Shown here: piece by piece, positions 195-27,800 of the stretch | Numbering within the stretch: the stretch's first letter is position 1 | Layout: each line of letters starts with the position of its first letter | Assembly: GCA_001430745.1 (NCBI GenBank) | Contig: KQ481995.1 | Location: forward strand, 165,583-193,954 | Direction of reading: 5' to 3' | Origin: Auxenochlorella pyrenoidosa | Lineage: Eukaryota; Chlorophyta; Trebouxiophyceae; Chlorellales; Chlorellaceae | DNA length: 28,372 nt | The notes under the pieces: generated by a model | Databases searched by the model: none | What the model saw: only the letters and a program-made list of their open reading frames with translations | What the model was told of the DNA's origin: nothing | Program-made: the position numbers and the translations under genes

Positions 195-1257
195 TGAGCT
201 GGATGGAGCTCACAGAGCGCGGCGCCTCTGCCCGCGAGATTGAGGACGAGGGCAAGTCTGCGCTGGAGCGGGCCATCGAGGGCGTGCTGCCCGGCACCCA
301 GGGTGCGCTGCCGCCGCCGCCCGCCACCCCACACACAGACGCACGTGCCGGCTTGCGCTTGCACCGCCTTGCCTGCCTGCCCGCCTTCCCGCCCGGCCTG
401 ACCCGCACCCGCCCCTGCTTCCTCCGCTGGCCCCGCCACCACCTTGAGCCTGCACCTGCGTGCACTGGGTGCGCCTACGGCCCGTGGGCGAGCCCGCTGG
501 GTGGCCCAACATTGCTGCTTCCACACGCTTTCGCCTCTCCTAAGCAGCCTGGGCACCGATCCCCAGCCTTTTCTCCTCGCCCCCCACTTCTCACCCTGCT
601 GCAGACGAGTTCCAGGCCGCTGCCGACAGCGAAACGCTGGCTGACGACTTGCTCACCCGCGCCAGCAAGCAGGCCGACGGCGAGTACTACTCTGTTCTTG
701 CTGGCGCGCTGGTGGATGAGGAGGAGGAGGCGGCGGCGACCGAGAGCGTGAGCGAGGAGGAGGAGGAGGAGGAGGAGGCAGAGGAGATGCTGGCGGCGGC
801 AGGCGGCGGCGGCAAGCGGCGCGGGCCGGTGCTGGGCGCGGCGCATCAGGTGGGGGGCCGCTGCCTTGCTGGATGCTATCTGCTGCGTGCTGCCTGCCGC
901 CGGCTGCGTGCTACCTGCTGCATGCTGCGCGCGGCTGCATGAGCAGGCCGGCCGAGCAGCCAGTGCGCTCGCGCACCGGCGGACAGTCTGTGTCGGGTGG
1001 CAGGGAGCGGCGCAGGTAGGTGCGGGGCTGCCTGGTGTGCCCCTGCCCGGCTCCGCAGAGAGGCACCTCCCCGGCCTGCCGCCACATTGAAGCCGCTGTA
1101 TTGCCCGGGTCCCTGGCTGCAGAGCAAGGTGCAGGCAGCGGCTGAGGAGCGGGAACGGCAAAAGGCCGGGCTGCTGGAGATGGGCCAGGGGTCGTGGAGC
1201 GGGCGGCCCTCAGACCCGCTTTTGGACCTGCTTGACCGGCATGACCAGGCCAGCTAA
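195..1257 (+). CDS. Unrecognised acidic protein, C-terminal part (three exons)
   Basis: Three exons join in frame: 195-302, 605-849 and 1123-1257, with GT-AG introns at 303-604 and 850-1122 and TAA at 1255-1257. The 162 or so visible residues start with a charged helical stretch (WMELTERGASAREIEDEG), continue through a second helical block with DEFQAAADSETLADDLLTRA, then a long Glu run (about ten acidic residues after SVSEE), a Gly/Ala linker with a KRR patch, and a final charged helix ending in LLDLLDRHDQAS. The acidic run and coiled-coil-like composition are clear, but I recognise no family. The 5' part lies outside the window. The two introns hold short CTGC-rich repeats but no other gene. 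The frame is supported by phase agreement at both junctions and by composition, not by homology. Confidence 0.6.
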
Positions 1258-1328
1258 GACACCTGCCAGCTGGCCAGGCCAGTTGACCGGCAAATTGCGC
1301 GACAGTTGACCGGCATGACCAGGCCAGC
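1232..1328 (+). repeat. Tandem duplication of the stop-codon region (74-bp period)
   Basis: A 23-bp identical segment (TTGACCGGCATGACCAGGCC plus AGC) occurs at 1232-1254, where it encodes the last codons before the TAA, and again at 1306-1328 in the 3' region. A shorter partial copy (TTGACCGGCA) is at 1283. The second copy is followed by CGAG instead of TAAG, so it would not supply the same stop. Confidence 0.8.
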
Positions 1329-1929
1329 CGAGGCGCCCACCGGCTGGTTAGGCCGCCCAGACGGCTGGCGGCCCGGGCGACGCCAATGCTACTGACCCTT
1401 GTGCGCAGCCTGCCGCGAGCCGGCCTGCCCCTCTCAGCCCACATTTCATTCCTGCGGCACGCATTGGCGGGCCCGCCCTTGCAGCGCGCACTGCTGCCTC
1501 CTTCTGTCCGCTGCCCGCAGCCTTGCCCCTGCCACCCTGATTTTCCAGGGGCAGCCCTCGTTTTGCTCTTAGCCCGCGCGTCCCTGCCCCTCCCTCTGCC
1601 TGGGGCCTGAATGTCTCGCCCCGCCTCCGCCCTTCTCTACCCACCGCCCAGCAATGCTTGTACCAAGCCTCTCAACAACTTGCATCCGGAAAGGCCCCGA
1701 GCAGGGTCGCCGGCATGGCGTGAATCGGGGCAGGCATGGGGAAACAGAGCATCAGCGTGGAGCCTGCTGGTCGCCAGGCTGATGCTGGGTGCTTGAGCAT
1801 GCAGGAACGCTAGGGAAGAATCGACGAGTAAAAATGCAGGCATGCGCAGGCTGGCCGCAGCAGCTGGCGGCTCGCTACAAGACTGGCAGGTTCAAGGCAG
1901 AGGCAGCGCCAGCTCGTGAGCCGCCAGGC
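1258..1929. other. Convergent 3' intergenic region
   Basis: This region lies between the stop codon of the left plus-strand gene and the stop codon of CHLD on the minus strand, so it should hold both 3' UTRs. I find no TGTAA in either orientation and no spliceable coding frame. Open frames here, such as the 98-residue minus frame at 1348-1644, look like GC-driven chance frames. Confidence 0.5.
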
Positions 1930-4359
1930 TCAGGGCTCGGCCTCGGCCATGGCTGCGCGGGCTGCTGCCGAGATGGCGGCTGCCGGGTCTGCCACGTTCG
2001 GCAGCAGGTGATACCTGCCGCCGGCAGCGTTTGCAATCTCCCTTGCAAATCCGCGACTGATGTACCGGCTTTCTGCAGAAAGGGTGGTATGTTGGGGATG
2101 GGCCAGATGAAGACGTGAACTTGCTTGTTTGGGCTTAAAGTCTGTCTATCCGCAACGGAACTTGCGACACAGAACTGAGCAGCACAGTCTGTTTGCAAGG
2201 GGTGGAGAGCATGCGTCGGGCACTGCTATAGTGCGGGGCCGCGGGCACTGCTATAGTGCGCCCATGGCGGGCAGGGCGCCCGCCTGCCAAACATCACACC
2301 CACGAATTGCCTGGAGTGAGCAGCTCTGTATTGAAATTCACAGCCTGCCATGCGCCCGCTGTGCCAGGACACTGCCTGGCAGGGCCTTAGTCCTCTGGTT
2401 AAACCCCCGACCTGTCACCTTTGGGTGCGCACCTGTGTCAATGACGAGCAGCTTCATACCAGTTGCCCCCAGCCTGCGCGCCATATCCAGGACCTCGGCA
2501 TTCAGGGCCTCCTGCCAGAGCGGGAGTTGCGGGCAATCATGTGCAGTGCAGCGCTGGCTAGAGGTACTGCTGGCTGCCATGCTGGGATGGCCCGTGCGGC
2601 AGGCTGGCTGGCTTTGCCGTGTGGGCACATTGTGGGCACTGATGGCGGGATGGGCAGCAAACGCAAGCAAAGCATCAGTGCTGTGCAGGGAAACACTTTC
2701 GGGATATGATTCTTCCTCCCGGCAGCGCTGCAGATCTCGTCGGGCAGCAGGCCTGGTTTACATGCCATGCTGCCAGGGGGGGGGCCTCTACCTGAGGTGG
2801 CGTGACCGCCTCTGCACCAGGATCTCTATTGCTGCGCGCCAGGCTCACGTTGGCACGGCCGTCTGCAGCCAGGCGCGAGACAAGAGCTTGCGGCATCCCA
2901 CGATGCTAGGCATGGCAGCAGGGGGAGGCCAAGCTGCCGAGAGACCAAGGGGGCCACAAGGGGTGCACACCAGGGGAAACAGGCTGTGCACTGCTCCTCT
3001 GGAGACAAGATGGACTAGCAGGGGGCACTCTGGCACCAGCAAGCCCTAGGCTTGGCGCCGCGACTGAGCAGCCACGCGCTGCTGGCACGGCAGGGTCGCC
3101 CCAACTTTTCATTATTTGCTGAGGGCACTGCCCCTGCTGAGTCCCCCCGCCCCCCCCCCCCCCCCCCGTCCCTCTCCCCCCGCCCTACCGGTCAAAAGCA
3201 CCACCAGGCAACGCCCCACCTCGCCCTTCTTTTGCGCATTGGCCCCCACACGCGCCGCCAGCGAGAGGGCTGCAGGGGAGGGGGGCGAGAGGCTGGCAGG
3301 AGGGCCAGTGGAGCACTGCTGGTGGGACCGTGGTGCAAACAACAGGGTGACTCTGAATCCGCTAGTGAAACAGGGCATCTTTGGGGCAGCCATGGGGCCA
3401 CAGCATGCGCACCCGTTAAACCCCCCCCCTCGAGCGGCTGCCAGGTTTTGGGGCATTTGCGCAAAGCCAGAAGATGCAGCCTGCACTCCTGACCGTGTGC
3501 CAGGGGGGTGCCACCGCTGCAAGGCAGGACCTCCAGGCGTCTGCGCGCCAGTGCCACGGCTCTCGACGGAGGCACCAGCACCTGTGTCCAGGGGTGTGAG
3601 GATTTGGGGGTAGCCTAGAAGTCGGTGAGGCTTCGAGGCAGGCATGAGGCTTCAAGGCCTGGCCTGCCTGCACCATGTTCGGGCTCAATGCACTGCGCTG
3701 ACAGGCGCCCCGCTTGCAGCAGAGTCACGCTGTGCGGCAGCGGCCCTGCCCTGCGCACTGCGGGCCCCTCTCAACTCCACCTGCCCCCGGGCGGGAAAGG
3801 CAGGCACACGGCACATGGCTGGATAGCATGACCTTTCCCGGGATAAGTTTCGTTTTATGATTTCGTGCGACGCTTTCATGCCTTTGCTCATTACAGCGGC
3901 CCACCTCTGCAGCATCGCCGTGGAAGGGCAGTACCGCCACGTGGTCGCGACTGACGTACGACTGGCCCAGCAGGCGCAGTGCAGCGCCCTGCGAGCGGGC
4001 AGGCAGGTCGGACAGCTGCGATCTTAATCGCAGGCTGCCGCACGACTGGCCCAGTCGGGGCAGCGCGGCGGCCTGCGCCATGGCGGGCTGGCCGGGCAGC
4101 GGCCAGCAGCCCAGCCAGCCAGCCGGCTTGGTTTGCGGCTCTGAGGCTGTCGCACTGAGCAGAGCCCCTTCTTCCGAGTCTCGCAGCCGCAGCAGTAAGA
4201 TAGTCCATCCTACCAGACCATTTCCTCCTGCACAAGCACCCACCTTGGCAGCCGCCATGCGGTTAAGCGCCATGGAACCCGAGGCATCCACCACAAACAG
4301 CACCAGGCAGCGCGACTTGCGGGCCAGGCGCTTGGCCCTGCCGCAAGTGGAGGGAGACA

Positions 4360-4390
<31 letters not shown>

Positions 4391-7300
4391 GTTGGGGGTT
4401 GGGGTGGGTGGGTGGGTGGGTGGGGCCACTGCGCATGGAGCGCTCAGGTACACAGATACCCCAAACCCCGATTATCGGGCAGGATGCTGGTGGGCAGGCA
4501 GGCAAGACAGTGGTGCAGGCCGGCGGGCTGGCAGTACAAACTGCAACCATGCAGCGCGGGAGGACGAGCACAGGCGGACCCTGCTCAGAAGATGATACTT
4601 TACGGAGCGCAGGCTCGAGGCATGCATGATCAGGTGCGGGGAGGGTCGAGAGCCCGCCTGAGGTCGTCCTGGGTAATGTAGATCCTCCTGCCGCCCCTGC
4701 CCTGGGCGTCTGCTCGGCGCCGACGAGCGAGCTGGTGCGGCGCCGCCGCGCGCAGGGTCGCATCCACCGCCAGCCGGCGAACCTTTCCTGCACAGGTGGG
4801 GTGGGGGTTAGGGGGGTGCGGGGGACGCGGGGTGCATGGGCAGCTAGGGCAGTCGCATTTTTGCACGATCACACTGTCCCCGGCATGGGCGTCAGTAGGC
4901 GACTTGTGCCCTTCAGTAGCGACAGTGGCATCCACACACGGCTGTTGTAGCACATGCAAGTGCTGTCAGACGCCGCTCATGGCCAGGGGGCGATGCGGAG
5001 GGGCATGCTGCCCTCTCAGCAGCTGTGCGGCCTCTTGCCTTTGGGGAACACAGGCTTGACGTAGCGTCCCCTCTCCTGCGAAAAGATGACGTTGCGGCTG
5101 CGCCCGCCCTTGCCGCGCAGCCGCTTCTGCTGCAGTGCAAAATACAGCACTGCAGGGCAGGCAGACCGGGGGCAGGGGAGTGGGCTCGCTGTCAGAGCCA
5201 GGCAGGGTCAATGGGGTGGGCAAGGTGGCAGAGCGGGCAGGCGCGGGCAAGGTAATGGCAGATGCCCGATCAGAACGGTTGCCACTGGGGGTCGCAGCAA
5301 GGCACGGAGTGCAGGTGTGGGCCATGCATGCAACGCCCAAGCCGCCGAGGCCTGCCGAGCCTGAGCGCCTGCACCAGGTACAAACTCGCGTGGTTGATGG
5401 AGTTGGCATGCAACTGTGGCCGGAAACAAGCATGCAGCCTGCGCCCCCAGCAGCCTCGCCTGAAGGGTCTAGCGCAACCTCTTGCACCCCCACCATGAGC
5501 TCTGCTGGGGGCAGCGTCGCCTCCTCAGCTGTTGCCTGCTCCCGCTGCTGCTCCTCCTGCTGCTCTTCCTCCTCGGGCGGCCTCTCCGCTGGGGGCGGCG
5601 GCGGCGGCGGCGGGCGAGGCGGCGGCGCCACCACCAGTGTGGCCCGTGGCAGGATGGCCAGCTGCACCGCTGTCTGAAGGTCGGGAGCCTCGACACGGGT
5701 GCTGCCCCTGCAGGGCGCGCAGAGCTGTCAGATACACTTCAGTTTGTGCCTTTCAAGTGCTGAGTTTTCCTCCGTCCTAGGCCTGTGAATAGGCACCCCT
5801 GTTTGCCCAATCCTTGCTGCCCATGCCAGAGCATTGCGCCTCTTTCTCGCCTGCGCTGCCCGCACAGCGACTGGGACTGCTTGCCACCCCCAACCAAGCC
5901 TTGCCTGAGCGCTGCGGCAGCACGGGCCACGCGTGCTGCCGACAGCTCAGCACGCTGCCCCTGGCAGCCCAGCCGCGCCGCCTGTTCCACCAGGAAGCGA
6001 GCATGGGCCTCGGACAGGGCGACGTCCGGCAGGGCCGCCCGGGCAGCCAACACCTGCTGGCATTGCAGAGGGGGTTTTGGATTTTGATGGGGCAGGCGGC
6101 GCATGGATGCGCGCCAGCAGACCAGGCACGCGGGTTGGAGGCAGTACAGGCCTGTCTGCATCGACTCAGACGAGCAGCAACTCTGCACGGCACAACGCCG
6201 GGGCACGGGTGGCCTGGCCCGTGCGATGTATGTAGCCAACCAGACACTGCGCCGGGTCAGTCCTGGCACAGTGCAGGCCTCAATGCTAGCCTGCGATGCT
6301 AGGCTGGCTGGCAAGAGAGCTCACCGCCATGCGCAGCGCCCCAGTGTCTTCCTCTGTCTCTGCCAGGACGTCCGCCTGCCGGTCCTGGAAGCGCTCCGCC
6401 GCCAGCGCTGCCTCCACGCGTTGCTCCACGGGGAAGGAGGATATGTCAGCGCTGCAAGGGGGGGCGGGGTTGGTAGGGACGGGAGTGGTGGTGGTGGTGG
6501 TGGTGGTGTGTGTGTGTGTGTGCGTCCCCTCATTATGGTGCTTGTGTTTGTGGGTAGGAAGGTGGGGGTGGGGGGCAGCTTGTGCACGGAGGGGGCTGTT
6601 GGTGCCTGGGGTGTGCTGCATGGGAAGCCAGGTTGCAACAAGCCGCCTAACCACGGAATGGGGAGGACGCGCATGAGCTCAGCCTCCCTCCCTGGAGGCA
6701 CAGGGGCGCCCGCCACACCCCCGCCCGTCCCCCCGGCAGCCCTTGCCTCAGGCCTATGGCAAAGCGGTCCAGAACCCCCTCCCGCATCTCTCCCTCCTCG
6801 GGATTGTAGGTGGCAATGAGCAGCGGCTGGCAGCTGCAAGGGCTGGGGTGGGGAGGTGGGTGGGTGGGGGCCACATGGCGCGGCGCTGCGGCGCTCTTGC
6901 CCCGCAGAGCGGGTGCAGCATGTTGCGACATGAACAGCTGGCAGGTCAGGCCTCACGGGTGCGCAACAGACACGCCCTCGCGTTCCACCACGCTCCACCC
7001 TGCCGCAACGGTGGACAGCAGCAGCGAGCGGGTGCCTTCATCTGCGCAATGGGGAGGGGACTCCGCCCAGGTCAGCGCCGCTGTTTCGCTTACCAACAGG
7101 TTTCACTGCATCGCCCAGCCATGCGGTGCGCCGGGGTTTGCTGGGCCAGCGCGAGGTGGCACTGCACGGCTCCTTGGCAAGGCAGGGTGCCCTGCAGCCT
7201 GCTGCGCCCACCCAGTGGCCCCCATGCGACGAGGGTCCCCAGCCGAGGCTTGTCCCGGGGCCTGCTGCTCACCCAGCAGGTTTATGTCGTCGATGTACAG

Positions 7301-9102
7301 CACGCCACGGTGGCAGGCCGCCAGCAGTCCTGGCTGGAACACTGGCCTGCCCTCCTGCAGAGGAGGCGCTTCTGGCTGGGCGAGTAATACACCCCGCTTT
7401 AACACGCTGGCCGGTTTCCTTGTACTGGACAGCTGCCATTGCTACACCGCTGGAGCCGCATGGTGCGCCTGGGTGTGCAGCTGATCAGGGGGAGACTATA
7501 GTGGCATGGCGAGCCGCCGGCATGCGGCTCATACGAGCCTGGGACTGCAGTCGCATGCACAGCCTGAAAACCCATGCACAGCAGCGCAGCAGGCACAGGG
7601 GCCGGCCCACCACAACCGCGCCTTCCGAGAAGACAGGGAAGGAGAGCAAGCTGTATGGGCAGCAGGCACAAGACAGCAGTCAACTTGCCTTCATGGATGC
7701 CTCCGCATCCACCGTGCCCAGAAGCCGGTCCTCAGTGACCCCCAGTGGTACCGTCACAAAGGGCGCCGGCCGCATGCGCCGCGCCGGCGCCACGCCGCCC
7801 AGCCTTGCAGCCAGGCCGTCCTGCAATCATGGCTGGCTCATCAGGCGCGTGCCAGCAGCACTTTGCAAGGCTTTGCATGCCTGAGTGCGCAGCCCAGCTT
7901 GCCAGCGGGGCGAGCGCGGCAGTGCACGCACAGTGCGACGCCCCGGGCCTGCGAGAGGAGCATGCATGCCTTGGCAGCTAACTGTGTCGCAAGTGCCGCT
8001 GCAACTTTGCGCCCTGACAAGGAAGTGACCACCCACGCTCGGCCCACCTCCCAATCCGCTGTGTTGTCTGGGTCGGCATTGCACCAGGACGCGTCCACCA
8101 CCTCAATGGGCGGGAGCAGCTCGATGAGGCTCCGAGCCAGAACTGTTGTCGCGGGAAGGCCCGGCGAGGCAGAGGTGGTGCCGTGCAGGTAGGCGCGCGA
8201 GCGCAGCAGCAGCAGCAGCAGCAGCAGCCAGCAGCAGCAGCCAGCATTTAGGGGGCTTTGATTCAAGATGCCTGCATCAGCAGCAGCGGGAGCAGCCGCG
8301 CTCAGCACCGCTCGTGACGCACCCGACTTGGCCACGCCGTGGCCGCCAGAGATGACAATGCCGCCAATACCTGCGGGGGGAGAGGGCCAGTAACAGCCGC
8401 AGAAGGTGCGACCGAACAGTCTGACGCTGCCAAACCCAGTGGAACATGGGCGCGGCGGCGTGGGGCTCACACAAGCCGATGGGCGGCGGGCACCGGGCCG
8501 GCTTAGAGCCCCTCAGCCAGGGTTGCAGCAAACTTTCTCCTGCCCACACCCCCGCTGCGCGCCGCCTGCTCGCTACAAAGTATCCCCCACCTCTGCCCTA
8601 AACAAAATATTCCCCCACCAAAGTATGCCCCCACTCGCGAAACGCCCCAACCCACTGCTCCCACCAGGCACCTGTGTCCACAGCGCCCAGCAGCAGGGCA
8701 TGTTTGATGTGCTCCAGCCCAACCACAGCGGTCATAGGGAAGCTGCGGGGGCCTAGCCCGCAGGGCAGCACGGCTGGTGTTCTGTGCAAGCCTGCCGCTG
8801 CATCTACCCCAGAGCCAACAGCCGGGGTGTGTGCCGATGAAACAGGCTTGGTTGCGGTCAGCCTCGCCCTGGGGCTGAGTGAGCCGGGCTTTGGAAGGGT
8901 GGCGCCACTGCTGTTGCCGATGCTGGTGCGATAATCGCTGGGTCGGTTCTCGCTGGGGCCACCGTCATTGCTGCCGCAACTCCAGCAAGGACCGCTCGAG
9001 CAGCTGCTGCTAGGGTGCTGCGGCATGAAACCTGGATGCTCCGGCTGCTGCGCACACGGCTGCTGCGCCTGCCAGTCGATGGCTAACTGTGGCCAGCTCC
9101 AT
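1930..9102 (-). CDS. CHLD: Magnesium chelatase subunit D (ChlD), complete, 20 exons
   Basis: ChlD is the plastid Mg-chelatase subunit that couples the ChlI ATPase ring to ChlH for Mg insertion into protoporphyrin IX. Exons, 5' to 3': 9102-9032, 8781-8672, 8370-8323, 8142-8048, 7820-7689, 7354-7273, 7041-6957, 6833-6747, 6451-6325, 6053-5905, 5707-5460, 5149-5039, 4787-4658, 4337-4244, 3988-3905, 3581-3494, 3269-3189, 2862-2792, 2511-2433, 2072-1930. These total 2115 nt (704 residues), and every junction phase agrees. Residues 1-24 ([12 protein letters not shown]...) resemble a short transit peptide. Then come the AAA+ domain (Walker A GGHGVAKS at 69-76, Walker [12 protein letters not shown] at 169-179, [12 protein letters not shown]), a Pro/Glu linker (about 355-390), and the vWA domain with MIDAS DASGS at 509-513 and TDG at 607-609. 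Six introns need GC donors. The exon 11 donor (5459/5460) is the least certain. Length fits the family (about 670-760). Confidence 0.96.
2218..2260 (-). repeat. Two-copy direct repeat with palindromic core
   Basis: GGGCACTGCTATAGTGCG occurs at 2218-2235 and 2243-2260 (25-bp period) inside the last CHLD intron. Each copy is a near-palindrome (GCAC...GTGC). No function is evident. Confidence 0.85.
3150..3167. repeat. Poly-C tract (18 bp) near a CHLD donor
   Basis: Eighteen consecutive C on the plus strand give a G tract in the CHLD sense RNA about 20 nt after the 5' splice site of the intron 2863-3188. Length polymorphism or assembly error is likely here. Confidence 0.9.
3958..4080 (-). repeat. 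84-bp tandem duplication copying the start of CHLD exon 15
   Basis: In CHLD sense, exon 15 begins CGCAG|GGCGCTGCACTGCGC and continues to CTGGGCCAGTCGTAC. An upstream intronic copy reads GCGCAG|GCCGCCGCGCTGCC and continues to CTGGGCCAGTCGTGC. Matching points are 3958/4042 and 3989/4073, both 84 bp apart without an indel. The downstream copy carries the conserved residues ([15 protein letters not shown]). The intronic copy, if read, gives [12 protein letters not shown], so it is a decayed duplicate including the acceptor AG. Confidence 0.8.
4361..4425. repeat. (TG)n followed by (GGTG)n in CHLD intron
   Basis: A (TG)11 run at 4361-4382 is followed by GCGCGTGG and then GGTG-type repeats at about 4401-4425, within the CHLD intron 4338-4657. 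On the CHLD sense strand it reads as CA and CCCA repeats. Confidence 0.9.
6485..6522. repeat. (GTG)n-(TG)n microsatellite in CHLD intron
   Basis: GTG triplets run from about 6485 to 6507 and then TG dinucleotides to 6522, in the CHLD intron 6452-6746. This is the same GT-rich composition as the other long introns. Confidence 0.9.
8203..8242. repeat. (CAG)n microsatellite in CHLD intron 3
   Basis: About a dozen interrupted CAG triplets lie in the intron between CHLD exons 3 and 4 (8143-8322). The reading frames across it are shadows. Confidence 0.9.
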
Positions 9103-9758
9103 GGAGCATGAGCTGAGGCTGCCGCTGCAGCTGCGGCTGGCTTCCACGAAGCGGCTGTTGTTTGCTGCTCCAGGGATTGGGTTAGGGTTTGGACTGCATA
9201 GCAAGAGAGATACGGATCTGACAGATCCTCCACTTGGATCGTTAGAAAGAAAAATAAAAATGAAAGTGAAACGAAAAATTAAGTTGCAATGGAAGGGGTG
9301 GAACTGGGGTGGGCTGCAGCGCGGCGCCGGCATAGCCGACTGGCACTATGAAAGGCGCTCACCCTGGTCGCACCGACCGCTGTCGTGCCGTTTACGACCG
9401 TCAGATGCATGACTTGTCAAGGCAATCGATCGCCGCGTGGGGCCGCCGAGGCCGCAGAAGACAGAGACGGTGTGCAAGGCTGCAAAGGTCGGGCATTGCA
9501 TCCTGACAGCGCCAAACCCACAGAGACCGTTCACGAAAGAATCAACCAGATCGAAAGGGAAGGCTTCAAGCCTTCCACAGCGGCCCTGGATCTCTCCATC
9601 AGTGCCACTGCTGAGCTCAGCGCCGAGCGGGATGCTGACATGCTCCTCAGAACGCTGCTCTGGTTTGACCACCGACCTGCCCCTCTTTCTCATGCCTTAA
9701 TATTGAAAAATATCTTGTGTGGCCGACTCATTGAAAAGCCAGTGTCACAAGGGATGCA
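9103..9758. other. Region between the COA1-like stop and the CHLD start
   Basis: Both flanking genes are on the minus strand, so this region holds the 3' UTR of the COA1-like gene and the 5' UTR and promoter of CHLD. An A-rich stretch at about 9240-9285 stands out against the GC-rich background and could be core promoter. A telo-box lies at 9182-9190. I see no credible coding exon. The 115-residue minus frame at 9346-9693 lacks splice or homology support. Confidence 0.5.
9182..9190 (-). promoter_or_regulatory. Telo-box-like element upstream of CHLD
   Basis: AAACCCTAA on the minus strand lies 80-88 bp upstream of the CHLD ATG (9102). In land plants this element (AAACCCTA) occurs in promoters of translation and replication genes. 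Activity in this alga is inference, since a 9-mer can occur by chance and the site also resembles a telomere repeat unit. Confidence 0.4.
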
Positions 9759-11225: not shown

Positions 11226-11791
11226 TGTGCCTGCAAGATGAGGGGAGTGTGAGGCGGGTGGGGTGGCCTAGCAGCAGGCGGCGCCGGTGGCACGCGCTGG
11301 CGGGCAGTGGCGGCAGACGCCAGTGGCGCACCTCTTTCAACTGCGCAGCCTTTACGAAGAAACGAGAGATCTGCTATCAGCGCTCTGACCAATTGAGAGC
11401 AGAAGGATTGGGAGAAGCGAGGAGTGAAAGGCGGGGCAAGCGACGAGGCGCCCTGGCTGCGGTAGAAGATGATTGTTGCGCCTTCAACAACTTCGGATCA
11501 ATAGCAATGGCAAAGACTGCAGGTTTGGTCCGGTAGAATGGTTGCGGCCAAAGTGGCAGCTGATGTCAACATGCGAAGCCCTAGGGCGATCCGTCAGTTT
11601 CTCCTGCTCATAACGTCGACGATGGCTTGGCAAACGTAATACAGGGCACTTCTGGTGCACACACTTGTGACTGCACACCTCCTTTGCCTCTCTGGGCGCT
11701 GCCGGGCCCACAGGGGGCTCGCCGCTTTATTCTGAACATCCAATCGATCTGTATTTTTGCGGCGGTGGCCGCGCTAGCGACCGGCAGGGCC
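11226..11791. promoter_or_regulatory. Divergent promoter region, COA1-like / family X polymerase
   Basis: The two genes start 566 bp apart on opposite strands. The region is less GC-rich in its centre. It contains CCAAT at 11389-11393 on the plus strand and CCAAT on the minus strand (ATTGG at 11405-11409), a facing pair about 15 bp apart. I see no TATA box and no coding exon. A 102-residue frame through 11627-11935 simply runs into polymerase exon 1. Confidence 0.45.
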
Positions 11792-14700
11792 ATGGATGCA
11801 GCGGCGGAGCGGGCGCCCAAGCGGCCGAGAACGGAAACAACGCTGCCGCAAGCAGACAGCAAGCCGCTCACAGGCCTGACCATATTTGTGCCAAAGCATG
11901 GACTGCCACATGGTCCGGCCATGTTTAGACTGTGAGCACAAAACCACACGCACACAAGCCGCGTGGAGATCCAGCCTGCCACCGGCCTGTTGTTGCTTTC
12001 TGGGTGCATTGCCGCCCCTCCTCTCTGCCCTGCTTTGCCATCCCGGCACAACCCCAATGCGTGCAGGTGGAGCAAGAGCGTGCCCTCCGTGGGCGGGGCA
12101 GTCACTCAGGACGAGTCCTGCCCCTGCCTCACCCACGCCATCGTGCCAGCAGCAGCGCCGCCCGGAGCCGGCACAAAGGGCATGGCCGCCAGCGCCAGCA
12201 GCAGCGGCGGGGCCTGGGCAAGCCTGCCGGCGCCCCTGCAACCAGGCGCAGCAGCCGTGCCAGTTGCGCTGTTGTATGTCACCCAGGCCTGGCTCACAGA
12301 CAGCCTGCGCTTTCAGCGGCGGCAGCCCGAGCGTGAGTACCGACCCCCGCCTGCAGCACCCACAGCTGTCGCCGCTGCCACCGGCACGGCTGCTGCTCCT
12401 GCCGCCGCTGGCGGTGCCGCAGCCAGGGGCAGCAGGCGAAGGAGCGGCGGATGGTCAACGGACGAGGGCGGCAGCGACAAAGAGGAGGGGGGCGGCGGCG
12501 GCGGCGCGGGGGACGTGGCCAGCCTGCAGCGCTGGCTGGGGCCGCTGTGGCGGGAGGAGTGCCTGGAGATGGAGAAGGCCGAGCTCATGCTGCAGGTGGG
12601 GTCGGGCCAGGGCTAGCACGGCGGGTGGGGGTGGGGTGGGGGTGGGTGTATGGGTGGGGCTCATGCTGCAGGTGGGGCCAGGCCAGGGAAAGGGGAAGGG
12701 TGAGGTGGGGGGGAAGATGTGGGTGAGCCGGAAAGGGATTTCAGATCTGCTCAGGCAATACACTCCCGGCCCCTAGTGCACGCTCACGCGCCGTCCAGCC
12801 TTGCTGCGCTTCAACCGCTGCCGCCTCCCGCTTCCCCCCCAGCCTCGCTTTCAGCACTGCTCCTGCTGTTGCCCTGGGTGCCTGCAGGGAGACTACGACG
12901 AGGAGCGCTGCCGGCGCATCGGCAACGAGGAGGTGAGCCCGTTCGGGGCCCTCCCACCTCCCCAGCTCCAAGCTCTTCACCGCCCAGCCTACCGTGCATG
13001 CATAAGCAGCCATGCTCTGACGCACCCCCCTGCACCTCACCTCACCCCAACTCGCCTCTCTCTTGGATGCTTTGTTGTTCACCTCACTGCAGTTCAACCC
13101 CCTCCAGCGGCCGCTGCAGGCGCTGCGGGAGCTGAAGCAGCCGTGCCCTGACGACGCACCTTCCTTTTCTCCACTACAATTTAATCATCCTTTCCCGGCA
13201 GGTGGTGCAGGCGCTGCGGGAGCTGAGGCAGTACGAGGAGGCGCTCAACGGCGCGACGCTCGTCACGCCCGCGGGACTCAAGCGGGACAACCACAAGGCG
13301 GGTGCTGCCCCCGGGGTGCTGGCTTGCTTGAGGATGTGGTTGCTGGCTGAAGGACGTGCCAGGCCAGGGGGTGTGCTGGCTTGAGGATATGCCGGACTGC
13401 GTCTGGGTGCTGGACCTGTGGTGTGGCAGACCCGTGGCTGCCGGACCAGAGGGTGTTGGAACTGATGACTTGAATCTGCCCCGGGGTGCCGGACCAGAGG
13501 GTGTGGAGCAGGTGGAATTTCATTGACCAATTTGACGTTATTAAAGCAGTCCTTCTCCTGCTTGAGTTCTGGCATGCCGGCCTGCCGGCACGGCGGCACG
13601 TTCACAGAGTGTGTGCACAAGGCTGGGTGTGTGTGCGGTCTTGCGCCGTGCACGGTGGCACGTGCACGGCGCGAGTGCGTGCACGCCCACCCAGCCTTGT
13701 TCACACATCCTGGGACGTGTTGCGCGCCGCAAGCGCAGGTCGCCGTCGACAGCCCGGCGCTTAATCAGCTTGCGCCGGTGGACTCACGCTGTCACGCCTG
13801 AGCGGTGCGCATCTATCTCTGATCCCTTCTGGTCCCTACGTCTCCTCCGCGTCTGTCCGCAGTCTCTGGCGTACGCCCAAGCAGCCGCTGCCGTGCGCAC
13901 GTGTGCCTACAAGCTCAAGCCGCCGGTGGTTGCAGGGCAGCTGCCCTACATGGCTGCGGTGAGGCCTGCCTGGTGCCAAGCCCTGAATGAATGCGTGCGG
14001 TGCTTCCGCCCCGTGAAGTGTGCACGGGTTGGACTCCATGTCGGTGTGCTCAGCCCCTGTGGCCCTCCCAACCCTCCAACAATATGGGTGGGAGCCGACC
14101 CCGACAACTCTGATGCCATCATGCAGAGCATTGCCGAGGAGGTGACCGCCATCCTGGCGACTGGGACGTGCACCAAGCTGGAGTGTTTCAGGTGAGGCCA
14201 AGGCGGTGTGTGGGCCCTGATCAGCTTCCTCAACCACGCCCACGGGCGTGCTCTTTGCTTTCCTTTTCCCCTGTGGGGGGGGGCCTGCAAGGAGTGACAC
14301 CTACACAACCGGGAATGAGCCCTCTGGCTCCTACCGTGTGGCCTCTCAACGCTGTTGGCGACAGAAGCCCCTCTGGGCCAACCGCCATTCTGCCTAGGGA
14401 GCGCGCCCCGGCGCCCCTGCTGCCCTGTCATCGCCCGCCACCCGCGCTGCCCCTGCTGGGCCGGCTCCCATTGACCGGCCCTGCCGCCGGGGGCGTCCCC
14501 CCTCCCTCGGGCCCAAGGAGCCAGCGCGCGACTCCCGCGGCTTCTTCCCATTCCTTCCTCCCCTCCCCACCCCACCCCACCACGCATCCCCTCGCCCTCT
14601 CCCGCAGGCGCAACGAGCCGGCGCGCGACTGCAGGGGCTTCTTGCCCCATTAGCCCATCCCCACCCGAACCCACCCCTCCTCCCCTCGCCCTCTCCCGCA

Positions 14701-17700
14701 GGCGCAACGAGGCGGCACGTGACTCCCGGGGCTTCCTGCGCCTTACACCCCACCCCACCCCAATCCGCCCCCACGCCCTTTTGTCCCCCCCCCCCCAGGC
14801 GCAACGAGCCGGCGCGCGATGCCCGGGGCTTCCTGCGCCTCGACAGCGCCGGCGCGGCGGTGCGCCGCCAGTTCTGTCGCCTCAACGGCGTGGGCGCCAA
14901 GACTGCAAGGGCCTGGTGGGAGGCTGGCTGCCGGTGAGGCCGGGGGGCTTGTGTGTATGTGTTGGGGAGGAGAGGGGTGTGGTGTGTATGTGGGTGGAGG
15001 CGTGGGGTGGAGCCGGTGCTTAACCGGGGCCAGGAGCTGCCGTGGGCAAGGGCAGGGTGTGTGGTGAGAGCCGGCGGGCCGTGGCGAGGTCAGGGTGGCG
15101 GGCAGGATGAGCAGAGATCGAATGTCCCGGCAGCGCAACACAGCAGTGCCTGACGTCGCAGGTCCCGCTGCCCGCTGGCGCACCGCCCATGGGCCCTCCC
15201 GCCTCAAGCGTGCAGGACATTTGAGGAGGTGGAGGCGGCGGCGGCGCGGCCGCACCCGCCCTTCAAGCTGACAGAGCACCAGCGATTCTCGCTGCGGCAC
15301 AGGGAGTATTTTTTGGAGGGCACCAGTGAGCCGCTTCCAGGGGCCGCTCCCTGGGGGGCACAGGGTGGATGCTCCTCTGCCAAAGGAACAAACACACCGC
15401 CACCTCAGCACCCGTGTCCTGACGCACGCCCCGGCGCTCCCTTGTCCCTGCCCGATCATAAGCCCCTTGGGGCTGGCTCGTGCGGGCAGGCGCGCAGGCA
15501 TTGAGCGCTCATTGCTTCCAGCTGGCCGCCCTCCCATACCCAGATGCTAAAACCCCTGCCATCTCACCCCGCCCCTTGCTGCCCCCGCAGCTGCCGAGGA
15601 TGTGGCAGAGATGGCAGCTGCGCTAGCAGCCGCCCTGGAGGGCGTGTCGGGCGAGGAGGGGTGGCAGATCGAGCTGGTGGGGGGAAGCCGGCGCAAGCGG
15701 CCAGCGGCCGCCGCTGGTGGCAGCAGGGACACTGGCGCTGCACGTGCAGCCGCGAAGGGCACCGACGCGACACCAGGAGCTGGGCATGGCCACGTAGCTC
15801 TGGCCAAGAGGCAGCAGGATGGGTCGGGGGACAGCCTCCGAGCTCCGGCAGAGGGGCGGGCGGGCGACGGCCTGGCCGCCGGCAGCCCCACCACCGTTGG
15901 CGGCAGCAGCTTCATTGCGGGCATCCTGGCGGGGCGGCACCACGATGCAGACTTTATGATCAGGTACGAATGGATGCCAGTGCAGCTCCGTCCACTTGAT
16001 GTGTTTGATTATTTGGTTGGTTGGTTGGTTGAGCAGGCAGGAGGGCTTGTCAATGCAGCGTGGCCAAGGGATGCGCAGGGCAGGGGACGGCAGCTGGCGG
16101 AGGGGGTGAAGCCGCCCCCTGCCCGGTTGTCAGCCCCTGGTTCTTGGCATGCAAAAGAGCCTTGACCGATTGGTTAGGTAATGGCAGGTGTGCGGGAGGC
16201 CACAGCGCATGCCCCTGGCGCGGGGCAGCCAGGCCTGGCTGCCTGCGCCAACCTCCAAATCTAAGCATCCCACACATCTCACAACCCGCCATGCCCGGCT
16301 GCAGCCACCCCACCTACGCCTGGGACGAGCACTTTGTCGGGGCCCTGAGGGACGAGATGGTGCGCCGGCGGCGCCTGGTGTCCCCCAGCGTGCCCGGCGC
16401 CATGTCCAGCCTGCAGGCAAGAGGGGGAGGCAGAGGGGTCGGGTTTGGGATGCATCCCACGCATAGCCAGCCCGCAGGCCAGAAGCAGCCGCTGTGCCGG
16501 CGCCATGCGGACAGCCAGCCTGCAGGCAAGCAGCTGTTGTGTCGGCACTATCGCTTGCGCCGCCCCGCCGCCCTCGCCCCATGCTCATCACCCGCCGGCG
16601 CACGTGCTTGCCCTTCCCCACCCTCTGTTCACCTCATTGCCGCCCCCTGCGCCGCGCAGTATGGCCGCACCCGGGACCTGGAGTCCAAGCTGCTGCAGGA
16701 GCTGACTGCGGNNNNNNNNNNNNNNNNNNNNNNNNNNNNNNNNNNNNNNNNNNNNNNNNNNNNNNNNNNNNNNNNNNNNNNNNNNNNNNNNNNNNNNNNN
16801 NNNNNNNNNNNNNNNNNNNNNNNNNNNNNNNNNNNNNNNNNNNNNNNNNNNNNNNNNNNNNNNNNNNNNNNNNNNNNNNNNNNNNNNNNNNNNNNNNNNN
16901 NNNNNNNNNNNNNNNNNNNNNNNNNNNNNNNNNNNNNNNNNNNNNNNNNNNNNNNNNNNNNNNNNNNNNNNNNNNNNNNNNNNNNNNNNNNNNNNNNNNN
17001 NNNNNNNNNNNNNNNNNNNNNNNNNNNNNNNNNNNNNNNNNNNNNNNNNNNNNNNNNNNNNNNNNNNNNNNNNNNNNNNNNNNNNNNNNNNNNNNNNNNN
17101 NNNNNNNNNNNNNNNNNNNNNNNNNNNNNNNNNNNNNNNNNNNNNNNNNNNNNNNNNNNNNNNNNNNNNNNNNNNNNNNNNNNNNNNNNNNNNNNNNNNN
17201 NNNNNNNNNNNNNNNNNNNNNNNNNNNNNNNNNNNNNNNNNNNNNNNNNNNNNNNNNNNNNNNNNNNNNNNNNNNNNNNNNNNNNNNNNNNNNNNNNNNN
17301 NNNNNNNNNNNNNNNNNNNNNNNNNNNNNNTTCGGTGCTGGTCGCGTTTGTGTGCGCGTGGTGGTGGTGCTGGTGCTGGTGCTGGTGGTGGTTGGGGTCT
17401 AAGGGGATGAGTCCCTTGTGTTTTTTGGACAGATCCAAGGCCAGCCCAGGGCAGTTCCGAGCCCTCCGGCGGCGCTAAGCCGGCGCCCCGCTTCCCAGCT
17501 CGGGTCACCCACCCCCGAAGGCAGCTCTGCAGTGGTGCTGTGCTCACAACCCACTCACAACCCACTCACAACCCTTACCTCACCCCCCGTACCATGCCAG
17601 GCTGGACCACCTGTTGGCCACCTTCGTCACCTCTGGGGGGCGGTACCGCCGCATCGACATCATCCTTGCCACCCCGGCGCAGCTGCCCTTTGGCCTGATA

Positions 17701-18643
17701 GGCTGGATAGGTGGGCGGGCGCCTGCTGGCCTTCCACCCGGCCTTCACCAGCGAGTGCAAGGGAGGGAAGGGTCTCCTTCATCAAACGCCTGGCCCTCTG
17801 CCGTCGGCTGTTGCAACTCCTGGGCCTGCGCTCCTCTCCTCTCACACGTGCAACTGGCCCCGCCGGCGCCCCCGCACCCCAAACCAACCCTTGCAGGCAG
17901 CGCCATGTTCAACCGCTTCCTGCGGCGCTGCATGGGGCACCGGGGCATGCACCTGAACTCCCACGGGTGAGGCACGCATCTGGCTTGCACCCGGTGCAGG
18001 CCGGGCCCTGCCACTTGCGCGCCACATCACAGTGGTTTCCAGTGCCATCACTTTTTCGTGGGTGCGGCCGAGCCCGCTGGGAATAGGTTTGGGTGCAGCG
18101 CTCTGCTCCCCTGTCGGCTGCGCCTGCTTGCTCCTTGTGTCGCCCCCGGCACGCGGGCCTCACAGCCTCCCTGTCTGCAGAAGAGCGCTGGCATGCACTG
18201 CAGCCAGCACGTGGTTGCCATGACCATGGCACACCCTCACACACACACACCCGCTTCGCAGGCTGTACCGCGTGCGTAGTGGGCGCATCTGTCGCGTGCC
18301 AGACGACGCGCCGCCGCTGCACAGGCGCGGCCACGAGTACTGGCCGCCCGGCTGGGGGCCTGCAGCCTGCAGCGGCGCCAATGGAGCCGCCGCTGGCAGC
18401 AGCAGCGCCGCCCAGCAGGCGCCCGGGGAGGCGCAAATGCCAGCAGCAGCAGCTCAGGAGGCAGCAACTGTGGAAGGCTTGGCGGCGGCATGCCATCCAG
18501 GCGGCCCACTGACCAGTTTGGAGGCGGCAGCAGCAGCCTCCGGGCGTGGCGCCGGCAGCAGGCGGCGGGTGCGGTGCCAGCGTGACGTGTTTGAGCTGCT
18601 GGGGCTGCCCTGGCGGGAGCCGTTCCAGCGAGACATGCCCTAG
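11792..18643 (+). CDS. POLL: Family X DNA polymerase with BRCT domain (Pol lambda/mu-like), gapped
   Basis: The gene encodes a nuclear gap-filling repair polymerase of the base-excision and end-joining type. Exons: 11792-11931, 12067-12595, 12888-12932, 13202-13297, 13863-13958, 14127-14191, 14799-14933, 15216-15325, 15591-15963, 16305-16416, 16660 to the gap at 16711, then 17601-17710, 17897-17966, 18262-18643 (TAG). Phases agree throughout. Residues 27-130 form a BRCT domain ending AWLTDSL. The 8-kDa region includes SIAEEVTAILATGT. The helix-hairpin-helix is FCRLNGVGAKTARAW. Palm metal ligands are D524 and D526 (HHDADFMI) and the Asp of RRIDII after the gap. Downstream are GSAMFNR and DVFELLGLPWREPFQRD at the C-terminus. 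Odd points: about 70 extra residues between GGSRR and DxD, a 75-residue Ala-rich insert before the last motif, and two GC donors (13298, 16417). Plants are known to have Pol lambda; the HDxDF motif is more like Pol mu/TdT. Confidence 0.9.
12583..12690 (+). repeat. 76-bp tandem duplication of the polymerase exon 2 donor
   Basis: GCTCATGCTGCAG|GTGGGG begins at 12583, where it is the exon 2/intron 2 junction, and again at 12659 inside intron 2. Both are followed by C-GGCCAGGG-type sequence. The first copy fits the reading frame; using the second would read through the TAG at 12614-12616. Confidence 0.85.
13116..13231 (+). repeat. 91-bp tandem duplication around polymerase exon 4 start
   Basis: GCAGGCGCTGCGGGAGCTGA followed by A/G and GCAG occurs at 13116-13140 and 13207-13231. 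The second copy is inside exon 4 (VVQALRELRQ). The first copy would read FNPLQRPLQALRELKQ from an acceptor at 13092, but it has no donor that keeps the frame, so I treat it as a dead copy in the intron. Confidence 0.75.
13611..13706. repeat. 96-bp near-palindrome (hairpin) in polymerase intron 4
   Basis: Left arm 13611-13654 and right arm 13661-13706 are imperfect reverse complements around a 6-nt loop (GTGGCA). The outer 18 bp pair with one mismatch (GTGTGCACAAGGCTGGGT against GTGTGAACAAGGCTGGGT), and the inner 12 bp pair perfectly (GCGCCGTGCACG). The intron is 13298-13862. Confidence 0.85.
14511..14820 (+). repeat. Tandem array of four copies of the polymerase exon 7 start
   Basis: Copies start at 14511 (diverged), 14608, 14702 and 14799, with spacings 97, 94 and 97 bp. 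Each has the exon start GCGCAACGAGCCGGCGCGCG or a close variant; the last three are preceded by a pyrimidine tract and CAG. Only the last (14799) continues into the conserved HhH exon. The copy at 14608 meets an in-frame TAG (RNEPARDCRGFLPH then stop), and the copy at 14702 loses the frame after LRL. Confidence 0.9.
16397..16530 (+). repeat. Tandem duplication of the exon 10 GC donor
   Basis: GGCGCCATG...CCAGCCTGCAGGCAAG occurs at 16397-16421, spanning the exon 10 end and its GC splice donor, and at 16499-16530 in the intron. A diverged partial copy (CCAGCCCGCAGGCCAG) lies near 16466. The first copy matches the exon end MSSLQ. Confidence 0.75.
16712..17330. other. Assembly gap (run of N)
   Basis: A run of 619 N interrupts the polymerase gene right after LLQELTA in exon 11. 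The missing part should contain the rest of that exon and the sequence leading to the RRIDII exon. The N count may be an estimate. Confidence 0.99.
17340..17355 (+). repeat. Dispersed repeat core, copy 2, with GTG/CTG repeats
   Basis: The 16-mer is identical to 10427-10442. It is followed by (GTGGTG)n and (CTGGTG)n to about 17395, in the polymerase intron just after the gap. Confidence 0.5.
17543..17574 (+). repeat. Three 11-bp tandem repeats
   Basis: CTCACAACCCA is repeated almost three times, 26 bp upstream of the splice acceptor of the exon at 17601. Confidence 0.85.
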
Positions 18644-24502: not shown

Positions 24503-24810
24503 AGCTTTGCAAAGGCCACGTTGGAACTTGGGGCATCAGGGCATTCCCACGCGATCGGGGTCTATTCCGCAAACCATCAGCCAGCATAAATTTCGCTGCG
24601 ACGCTCTGCCCCACCTCCTTGCCCGCTTGCGCCTCTTCGCCCCACCTTTCCTGGGCCGCACAAGCGCGCGGGCACCTGCTACACACCTGATCAAAACTTG
24701 AGTCGTGATCGCGACCGCCTCAGCGCTCGGCCGGCGGCGTGGGACGGCGTGCGCCGTTGAGGCGCGGGCGTCACCACTGCCCGCCACCCTGCCCATCGCT
24801 TCCCGGCAGT
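24503..24810. promoter_or_regulatory. Divergent 5' region, Gln-rich gene / F-box-LRR gene
   Basis: About 308 bp separate the two divergent genes and must contain both promoters and probably the true first exon of the Gln-rich gene. A candidate minus-strand exon (ATG near 24799 with coding for MGRVAGSGDARAST and a GTGTGT donor) does not join the next exon in phase, so I do not call it. There is no TATA box that I can defend. Confidence 0.4.
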
Positions 24811-27800
24811 ATGAGCACCCTCCCACAGCGGCCTACCTCACTGGATGACCTGGAAGATGCGCTGCTGGAGCTGATATTTGCGCGCGCGTGTGCGGCGCCA
24901 CAGCCGGATGGCAGCGCTGGGTTCCGCCACAACCCCGCCCTCCCGCTAGTGTGCCGCCGATTCTGCCAGCTTTACGTGCAGGTAGGGACTGGGGCCATGG
25001 TTGTCGAGCCCTGTGCGGCGCTCTATGGACGCTCTGTGCCGTATGGCTGCATGCAAACGCTGGCCCAGAGTGACTGCCACCGCTGCCGCCTGCAAGCAGC
25101 GGTGTGCCCTCCCTGGCAAGCACAGTGGTTGCCTCAAGGCGCTCTGCTTTCGTTTTTGTCGGGTGCCTGCAGAGCTCCCTGCTGTGGGAGGAGCTACGCA
25201 TCGACTGGTCGGTGCTGGCCAAGCAAGTTCAGGAGGCACAGGCAGCTGGCGGGCTGGTCCCCCGACCCGCCTTTGCTGCCGGCGCGGCCTGGCTGTCTGC
25301 CCGCCTGCCGTATGCCCAGCGGCTGCTCTTCCGAGGCTGCTTCGCGCTGGCGCCGCCGGCAGAGGCGCTGCCGCTGGCGTGGGTGCGCACCTGGTCTTGG
25401 CTTGGCAGGGCCCCCACTGGGGCGCGGCACTGCTGTGCTGGCCCGGCTTGCTGCCTACTTGAACAGGTGTTACCCCATGCATGCCCGGCTTGCTGCCTGG
25501 CAGGTGCGGCCCGGGCACACTTTCTCAAGCCACTCTCTCAAGCCTGCTGTCCCACCCGGCCCGCCCGCACCCCGCAGCTCTTCCCTGGTGGCCTCAGCAG
25601 CCCCCGCCTGGCAGAGGCGCGCCTGCTGGATGCCTGGGGCGGCCACGGCGCCGAGCTGCTCTGCCTGCTGCGCCGCTGCCCCGCGCTGCGCAGCGTCACG
25701 CTGGCCTGTCAGCCGTGGGCCCAGGGTGGGTGGGTGGGTTGGCAGTAGGTGGAAGGGTGGAAGGATGCGCCGCGCCGCGCCTGCCGGCTGGCTGCCCATG
25801 CTGCTGTCGCCTGTGTGCAGCACGGCAGGGGCCACGAGGGTCGCCTTCGGAGTCTGCCTCATTGTCCCGTCATGCTCTGGACAAAGCGCGCGCGCTGAGC
25901 CGCGCTGGCCCGTCCTCCTGCCCTTGGCTTGCGTCCTGCGCAGGCAGGGCGGCGGCGCTGGTACTGCAGGGTCAGCTGCTGCCCCGCCTGGCATGCCTGC
26001 CCAGCCTGGCTTCCCTGGAGCTGCATGTGGATAAGGTGAGCCGCCCGCCCAGCTGCCCCGTCCTCAGCCCTGCCTGCCCACGTAGCCCTGCATCCCCTGC
26101 TGCCATGCTTCTTGCGTGGGCTGCCCACCAGCTCACCACCCACTTCAGCGCCAACCCCCCCCCGGCCGGCCCTGTCCTGCAGGTCGCCGGCAGCCTGGCT
26201 GAGCTGTCAGAGGCGCTCCCTGGGCTCACCCACCTGTCCCTGCGCTGTCGAATGGAGTCGGCAGCGCTGGCGCCAGGGCTGCTGGAGGGGCTCAGCCAGG
26301 CGGGTGCTGGCGCCCGCCGCCGCGTGTCCGCATCTCGAGGCGCCTGCCGGGCTACCGCGGCCGCGTGCCCGCCCCCTTGTCCGCCTCTGCCCAACTGCTT
26401 GCGCCTCGCGTGCGCCAACCCCAATCCCCCCAACCCCCTACCCCACTCTCACCCACCCACCCACCTCCATATCATGCAGCTGCGGCGCCTGGAGCTGGAG
26501 AATGTGCGCGTGGCGCAGTTCACGCCCCGCCTGGCGCAGGCGCTGTGCCACCTGTCGTACCTGGCCTGCACGGGTGAGGCGGCCGCCGCCCCCAGCACAA
26601 CGGGCGCCTGCTGCCTGCGCACAGCGGTTGAGCCAATCCTTCTACCACGCTCTACACCGACCGCACCCGCAGACAGCCTGTTGGCTGCAGCCCAAGTGGC
26701 AGCTGCACTCCCTCCCCTCGGCCTCGTCCCCCTCCCTCTGTTGCATGCAGATGTCCTGGCCGGAAATGCTACGTCGGCTGCCCCTTGCAGGCCCACTCAT
26801 CGCTGCCTCAACTCCTCCGCCCTCTCTTTTGGTGCATGCAGACGTGCTGGCCGCGCAGCCGCGGCGGCGCGCGGGGGTGCAGCTGTGGCAGGGCCTTCGC
26901 CACCTGGCCTCCCTGCAGCACCTGCGGCTGGACCGGCAGGCCGGGGCGGGAATGCCCGCAAACGCGCTGGCCTGCCGGGGCCTGCGCAGCCTCACCCTGG
27001 TTGCCTGCGAGGCAGGGGAGTGGCCCGCGGCGCCGCACCAGCTGAGTGAGTGCGGGTGGCCCGCGGGGCGGGGCGCTGGCCACGCGCGCTGCCGCGGGAA
27101 GGGCCCCCTTGGCTCGCCCAGCTGCTGCGCGGCTGCCCTGCGGCTGCCCTGCGGTGGTGGGGAGAGCTCGCACTGCACTGGCGTGGAGCAGACGATTGCA
27201 AGCGCCAGAACACCTGTGCGCGGGTGGTTGTTCCCAGCCTCAGCGGCCCCCACCTCCACCCCCCGCCCCTCAACCCGCCACCTCCCGCCCCTCAACCCGC
27301 CCCCCCCTGTCTGCCACCCACCCACCCACCCACCTCCCCCCCATCCCCTGCTGCAGCTGGCGAAGGCGGCTGCCTGGGTCGCCTGGCTTCCCTGCACCTT
27401 GAGTCGCTGCACCTGCTGGCCCCGGTGCCGGCGCCGCTGTGGCGCCACCTGGCGGCCGGCCTGACCTCGCTGACGTGGCGCAGCGTGCTGCACGGCGTGC
27501 CGCAGGTGGAGCTGCTCCTGCCGGGGGAGGGCCCCCAGATCCACATGCAGGTGAGGAATCCAGGCTCAGAGGGGGTGGCTGGTGCGGCGGATGCACACGG
27601 GCGCACCAGGCGGGGGCGCTGCCGCCTGGCGCTTCGAGTCAAATGTGCAGCTTGCCCTGCCAACAGCAGGCAGCAGGCCTGTCAGCGGCCTGGGCTCCTG
27701 GCCAGTGCCGCCCCCTCTCCTCAGCGTACGTGCAACACGCACGCTGAGGTGCTGGCGCCCCCGTGCCTGCAGCCCCTGGGAGTCCCCGCTGAGCTGGCGC

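What the first reader, a model, noticed from the sequence alone, without database searches (positions are those of the whole stretch)
1232..26852. Recurrent 75-100 bp tandem duplications that copy exon edges across five places in three spliced genes and one stop codon
The sequence shows duplicates with similar periods: 74 bp (1232/1306, stop region), 84 bp (3989/4073, CHLD acceptor), 76 bp (12583/12659, polymerase donor), 91 bp (13116/13207, polymerase exon start), 97/94/97 bp (14511-14799, polymerase acceptor array), about 103 bp (16397/16499, GC donor) and 91 bp (26743/26834, F-box gene acceptor). Wherever an acceptor is copied, the coding copy is the last; wherever a donor is copied, it is the first. 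The extra copies therefore always lie in the intron. This suggests that introns in this genome lengthen, and may arise, by slippage-scale tandem duplication at exon edges. Intron gain by tandem duplication is known in principle, but so many cases in 28 kb would be striking. Mechanism is inference.
Basis: partly seen in the sequence, partly recalled or inferred. Interest (0 to 1): 0.8.

Follow-up and report, generated by a model that had tools for sequence, protein, structure and literature searches.

The report
Tandem duplications that lengthen algal introns
In this green alga, stretches of about 70 to 100 bases, often spanning exon borders, have repeatedly been duplicated side by side, which appears to make the neighbouring introns one unit longer without changing the protein.

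Summary
Self-alignment of 140.8 kb of this genome (a Chlorellaceae alga; window plus sampled stretches) finds 15 places with direct repeats at 69-103 bp spacing (seven in the window, eight elsewhere), against about 0.2 alignments expected by chance and no inverted ones at the same score. An exon edge lies inside an aligned copy at 11 of 15 (random 4.8, P=0.0007), but outside the window, which was picked for its repeats, at 5 of 8 (P=0.07). The coding copy faces the exon wherever one copy codes; an unchanged mRNA requires this. Best control: a paralogous intron without the copy is 126 nt, with it 209 nt, for an 81-bp period. So introns lengthen by about one unit. None of the 15 places shows a new intron. 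Size limit and direct orientation fit the repair-type tandem duplication known from rice better than slippage (inference). Unexplained: no young copies among the 15 (about 65% expected at a constant rate), several short near-identical cores, and clustering in few genes. I judge it a new variant of a known kind.

The parts
1232..1354 (+). stop-codon duplication: copies 1232-1280 (coding end; the CDS ends at 1257) and 1306-1354 (downstream), period 74
   Evidence: gene model
3951..4105 (-). CHLD-like gene, acceptor duplication: coding copy 3951-4021 (acceptor between 3988 and 3989), intronic copy 4035-4105, period 84
   Evidence: junction AAAKG|AALRLL matches Chlorella ohadii orthologue P0009 without insertion
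12583..12688 (+). family X DNA polymerase gene, donor duplication: coding copy 12583-12612 (donor after 12595), intronic copy 12659-12688, period 76
   Evidence: junction LMLQ|GDYD matches P0001
13115..13231 (+). polymerase exon-start duplication: intronic copy 13115-13140, coding copy 13206-13231, period 91
   Evidence: exon matches P0001; C. sorokiniana P0003 carries an in-frame repeat of the same peptide
14495..14840 (+). polymerase acceptor array, four copies at 97/94/97; the last (acceptor 14798/14799) gives the protein seen in the orthologue
   Evidence: FR|RNEP junction matches P0001
16394..16530 (+). polymerase GC-donor duplication, coding copy 16394-16421 (donor after 16416), intronic copy 16497-16530, period 103, weak
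   Evidence: score 34; junction SSLQ|YGRTRD matches P0001
26723..26853 (+). LRR gene, acceptor duplication: intronic copy 26723-26762, coding-side copy 26812-26853 (acceptor 26841/26842), period 89-91, weak
   Evidence: score 36; Pfam LRR; junction from the gene finder only
11792..16711 (+). family X DNA polymerase gene (5' part; 3' part 17601-18643 beyond a masked stretch) that carries four of the seven places

Best explanation
Tandem duplications of about 70-100 bp units hit some genes of this alga repeatedly. Where a unit straddles an exon edge (or the stop codon), the mRNA stays unchanged as long as the outermost splice sites are used, so the event can be fixed as a near-neutral change. 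The surplus copy then lies in the intron, which is longer by one unit, and decays. SHOWN: the duplicates, their size class, their direct orientation, and one paralogous pair in which the intron with the copy is longer by about one period. INFERRED: that the DNA step is fill-in/joining repair of two nearby nicks or a staggered break rather than replication slippage; that splicing uses the outer sites; that the surplus copies are neutral.
For: Fifteen places at 69-103 bp (mean 84.5, SD 9.9) in 140.8 kb; 17 HSPs at offsets 60-109 against 1 at 110-159 and no inverted one of that score. The array shows head-to-tail copies over more than a full period. Similarity core and spacer trade off (r=-0.79), so the period is the constant quantity (my 60-110 filter adds to this). 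Edge inside an aligned copy at 11 of 15; null 4.8 (P=0.0007), or 5.6 when all-exon placements are dropped (P=0.004). A random 69-103 bp unit straddles one edge in 35% of placements, so intron density alone gives much of the pattern. Introns with events are longer by about one unit (14 against 292 introns). Paralogue: 126 nt without copy, 209 nt with copy, period 81; own edge against rest of own intron scores 10 (97% of 2000 shuffles reach it) versus 34 (0 of 2000). Junctions backed by orthologues or a paralogue at 9 of 15 places (the three in L013 are my reading of P0006). Rice: tandem duplications start at 70% of events, decline above 125 bp and reach 5% by 200 bp, ascribed there to repair of adjacent nicks (PMC7971508, passages).
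Against: Outside the window, which was chosen for its repeats, the edge share is 5 of 8 (P=0.07, or 0.13 with all-exon placements dropped). A constant-rate neutral model predicts 64-66% of detected pairs with score above 66; observed 0 of 15 (maximum 65), although by another aligner without masking one array pair scores 113. It predicts 3-4% short high-identity cores (at least 92%, at most 30 bp); observed 5 of 15 (P about 2e-4). It predicts at most 42 exonic nt in 56-58% of edge cores; observed 11 of 11 (P about 0.002). All three cut-offs were set after seeing the data. For pairs of the observed score range the simulated edge share is 0.33-0.38, against which 11 of 15 is high (P=0.002-0.006); at 0.46 P=0.03, at 0.60 P=0.22. 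Events cluster: 14 pairs within 3 kb against 3.9 expected. So rate, age or decay is not as simple as stated.
Confidence: 0.66

Rival explanations
1. The intronic copies are kept by selection: they act as decoy or alternative splice sites or as splicing signals, so only the edge-like core stays similar.
For: More short, highly identical cores than simulated decay gives, and no young pairs; some copies keep a usable-looking donor (12659, L013 5396); C. sorokiniana polymerase P0003 shows the same exon-start peptide twice in frame; the gene finder could read the array with two mini-exons adding 10 residues in frame.
Against: Some copies have lost the splice signal (L013 upstream copy near 9849 reads GCTG where the coding copy reads GCAG, my reading; array copy 1 lacks CAG). 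The paralogous intron has no copy. A relative's read-through translation (P0004) shows no donor copy in the one frame visible. The stop-codon case has no splice site. Lack of similarity beyond the core does not discriminate: simulated decayed duplications give similar extension scores (mean 0.80-1.72 against 0.84 observed).
Confidence: 0.13
2. Short templated insertion or insertion with a target-site-like duplication: a 17-50 bp duplicate separated by filler DNA, as proposed for intron gain in Daphnia, not tandem duplication of the whole unit.
For: Short cores with sharp ends, e.g. 25 of 26 identical then no detectable similarity at 13115/13206.
Against: No inverted copies of that score at this spacing. 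Near-constant sum of core and spacer. The array and CHLD pairs are similar over the whole or most of the period. Two regions searched with their spacers (13116-13231 and L017 8260-8420) gave no other genomic match to the spacer.
Confidence: 0.12
3. Ordinary minisatellite or low-complexity noise read as pattern.
For: The genome has G-, C- and CTG-rich introns; other short-period repeats occur at 25-49 bp; L004 5456 belongs to a 46-bp intronic minisatellite and is one of the 15.
Against: Low-complexity filters on, 0 in shuffles, about 0.2 expected at this spacing.
Confidence: 0.03
4. Assembly artefact.
For: No reads were available.
Against: At 14 of 15 places the copies differ within the aligned core (one 17-bp core is identical), unlike stutter of identical sequence.
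Confidence: 0.02

Closest known systems
Tandem genomic duplication crossing an intron-exon boundary in potato RdRp (PMC4974935; abstract, Results section)
   Same: A tandem duplication spans an acceptor and exon start; the paper also mentions an 83-bp tandem duplication inside an intron of that gene.
   Different: In potato a new intron and extra exonic sequence resulted, with RNA-seq support; here the read-out is a longer intron and unchanged protein, at several places, without RNA evidence.
Tandem genomic duplication model of intron gain using AGGT (review PMC3443670, passages)
   Same: Short tandem duplication of genic DNA that splicing absorbs.
   Different: There an exonic AGGT segment is duplicated and the sequence between the two AGGT is spliced out; here existing introns are extended.
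Repair-type small tandem duplications in rice and mammalian cells (PMC7971508 passages; PMC8355091 passages)
   Same: Direct tandem copies, about 100 bp upper scale.
   Different: Those are differences between varieties or induced events; here all are diverged and no reads or alleles were tested.

Membership tests
Small tandem duplication by break/nick repair | direct head-to-tail copies | tested here: met
   array; direct 17 HSPs versus inverted 0 at score 34 or more, offset 60-110
Small tandem duplication by break/nick repair | size limit near 100-125 bp | tested here: met
   periods 69-103; 1 HSP at 110-159; offsets below 60 were not seen by BLAST
Small tandem duplication by break/nick repair | perfect, full-unit copies when young | tested here: inconclusive
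   0 of 15 young pairs in the BLAST set, so the feature could not be examined; the repair origin stays an inference
[quoted passage not shown]
   at each of the 14 intronic places the modelled intron is longer than the period
[quoted passage not shown]
   no relatives' DNA; the one paralogue read has the same intron, shorter
Introner (transposon-derived intron family; recalled) | many dispersed similar introns | tested here: not met
   8 of 15 places searched in the own genome: no dispersed intron copies; one search gave 40 further matches, nearly all CTG-type low complexity, and an exon of a paralogue each

The most novel reading that the evidence does not exclude
Exon-edge copies placed 70-100 nt inside introns are not decaying debris but are maintained, serving as decoy or alternative splice sites, and arose in gene-wise bursts, so that single genes gained several at once; some (the array) may already be spliced as mini-exons, a step towards new introns.
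Probability: 0.12. Interest if true: 0.75.

Novelty: new variant of a known kind. Interest (0 to 1): 0.5.

Why it matters
How introns get longer without harm is rarely caught in the act. A compact, intron-dense alga with several one-unit steps, including a pair of paralogous genes with and without the step, would let intron growth and splice-site choice between duplicate sites be measured directly. It also warns gene predictors: copied edges can create false mini-exons.

Tried and rejected
Orientation-random templated insertion: disfavoured, no inverted copies of score 34 or more. Dispersed insert or introner origin: no other copies found at 8 of 15 places searched. Multiple-of-three periods: 5 of 15, as expected by chance. 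Purely random placement: rejected at P=0.0007 for all 15, not for the 8 outside the window. BLAST reported nothing below offset 60, so short periods were judged by the ungapped scan only.

The gene finder was trained on this DNA starting from ten polymerase exons that I had read by hand, so its agreement with those ten is not independent. It made false mini-exons in the array (collapsed by hand) and one false exon in L017 that splits the intron 8296-8504 (left, corrected). It also missed part of a CHLD exon. My first hand-typed exon coordinates were wrong, mended. One search failed on a script error. The line on the paralogue's edge copy was wrong because a motif was not found; one search replaces it.

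The array was counted as one place. Of 27 stretches fetched, several read wholly or partly N. Only runs of at least 300 readable bases were used; with the window this gave 140.8 kb (17 loci outside the window, plus 1.1 kb of L027 joined to it). None was dropped after looking at events. One search listed in-exon repeats and 25-49 bp repeats, which I did not count among the 15; 'EDGE' was flagged for two of those. The rate outside the window is 8 places in about 112-113 kb.

Papers: PMC7971508, PMC8355091, PMC3443670 passages only; PMC4974935 abstract and Results; others as search listings. Searches listed, by title and abstract start, no report of exon-edge duplications in Chlorellaceae; listings 33, 51 and 52 were capped and the library is partial.
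Full report
WHAT IT IS. The window lies in a 51.6-Mb genome of 65 contigs. Its polymerase gene is closest to Micractinium sp. CCAP 211/92 (76% identical) and also matches Chlorella sorokiniana, and its CHLD-like gene is closest to Chlorella ohadii, so it is most likely a Chlorellaceae green alga. Genes are dense in introns: a gene finder that I trained on this DNA, starting from ten polymerase exons read by hand, finds 686 exon edges in 140.8 kb; introns without an event have median 205.5 nt.

OBSERVATION. All seven reported duplicates are there; two (16394/16497 and 26723/26812) are weak alone. I then sampled the own genome. Many sampled stretches read N. The readable total is 140.8 kb in 22 pieces. 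Gapped self-alignment gives 17 HSPs of score 34 or more at offsets 60-109, forming 15 places: seven in the window, five in L013, two in L017, one in L004. Offsets 110-159 give one. Offsets 1000-3999 give ten, i.e. about 0.2 per 51 offsets. No inverted pair of that score occurs at 60-110; at score 30 there are 3 inverted against 21 direct. Periods run 69 to 103, mean 84.5. Local shuffles give none in the ungapped scan.

PLACE. At 11 of 15 an exon edge or CDS end lies inside an aligned copy; three more lie within 1-5 bp of an edge and one 18 bp away. Random placement gives 4.8 (SD 1.8, P=0.0007), or 5.6 if placements wholly in exons are dropped (P=0.004). The window was chosen for its repeats: it has 6 of 7, the rest 5 of 8 (P=0.07 and 0.13). 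A random 69-103 bp unit straddles one edge in 35% of cases and lies in an intron in 37%. In simulations of neutral tandem duplication with decay, 44-46% of detected pairs show an edge inside the copy, 33-38% of those in the observed score range, and 40-65% depending on age. Against these 11 of 15 has P=0.002-0.35. Edge targeting beyond intron density is therefore suggestive, not proven.

THE RULE. The coding copy is on the exon side wherever one copy is coding (12 of 15). This must be so if the mRNA is unchanged: using the inner site would insert one period. Junctions are backed independently at nine places: four in the polymerase by P0001, CHLD by P0009, three in the L013 gene by P0006 (my reading), and one in L017 by its paralogue. 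The other six rest on the gene finder or on my reading.

LENGTHENING. Introns with an event: median 268.5 nt, others 205.5 (P=0.009); after subtraction of the extra unit 181.5 (P=0.34), 14 against 292 introns. Best control: the L017 gene (subtilisin-like by my reading of the peptides) has a neighbouring paralogue. The same intron (GGWNR|GEDASG) is 209 nt with an edge copy (period 81) and 126 nt without; the paralogue's intron shows no copy of its edge. This is one pair; the second event of that gene could not be compared. A relative's contig translated through the polymerase intron (P0004) shows no donor copy either, in the one frame visible.

WHAT DOES NOT FIT. A constant-rate neutral model would make about 65% of detected pairs young and strong (score above 66); none of 15 is, though without masking one array pair scores 113. 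Five of 15 cores are at most 30 bp and at least 92% identical against 3-4% simulated; exonic parts are at most 42 nt in 11 of 11 against 56-58%. These cut-offs were set after seeing the data. Similarity was not detectable beyond the core except at L013 5314 and marginally in the array, but simulated decayed duplications score much the same on that test, so it does not discriminate. Events cluster: 14 pairs within 3 kb against 3.9; without the window 9 against 1.3. Only 3 of 17 readable loci outside the window have events. Possible causes are a past burst, indel-driven decay of low-complexity intron parts, purging of young copies, or selection on the copies. In C. sorokiniana the same polymerase exon start carries an in-frame repeat of 13 residues (P0003), so this edge may have been duplicated twice or the event may be shared.

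MECHANISM. Rice tandem duplications fall from 70% of events to 5% between about 125 and 200 bp and are ascribed to repair of adjacent nicks (PMC7971508, passages). Small tandem duplications in mammalian cells come from fill-in at break ends (PMC8355091, passages). The size limit and direct orientation here fit that class better than slippage; this is inference. Potato shows that an edge-crossing duplication can make a new intron (PMC4974935). I saw no such case at the 15 places, though the array could be spliced with two mini-exons in frame.

Noticed in passing
window 1930-11739, minus strand: The CHLD-like gene looks like a second, divergent CHLD paralogue: 76% identical to Chlorella ohadii COHA_010180 but about 52% to that species' other CHLD (COHA_004360) and to Micractinium conductrix CHLD.
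   Followed up: partly
window 13115-13231: C. sorokiniana polymerase 'isoform C' (P0003) carries VVEALRELRKFEE twice in frame at the exon start that is duplicated here.
   Followed up: partly
window 13597-13719: A long imperfect inverted repeat (127 columns, 79%) in a polymerase intron.
   Followed up: no
L014 1293-1460: A long inverted repeat of about 119 columns, 76-79% identical.
   Followed up: no
L004 5456-5574 and 129-282: Intronic minisatellites of 46-bp and 25-bp units; the first lies 5 bp from a predicted exon edge.
   Followed up: no
sampled 133.5 kb: GC-AG introns look common: C at the second intron base in about 19% of predicted donors (the starting model assumed 4%; false exons included).
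   Followed up: no
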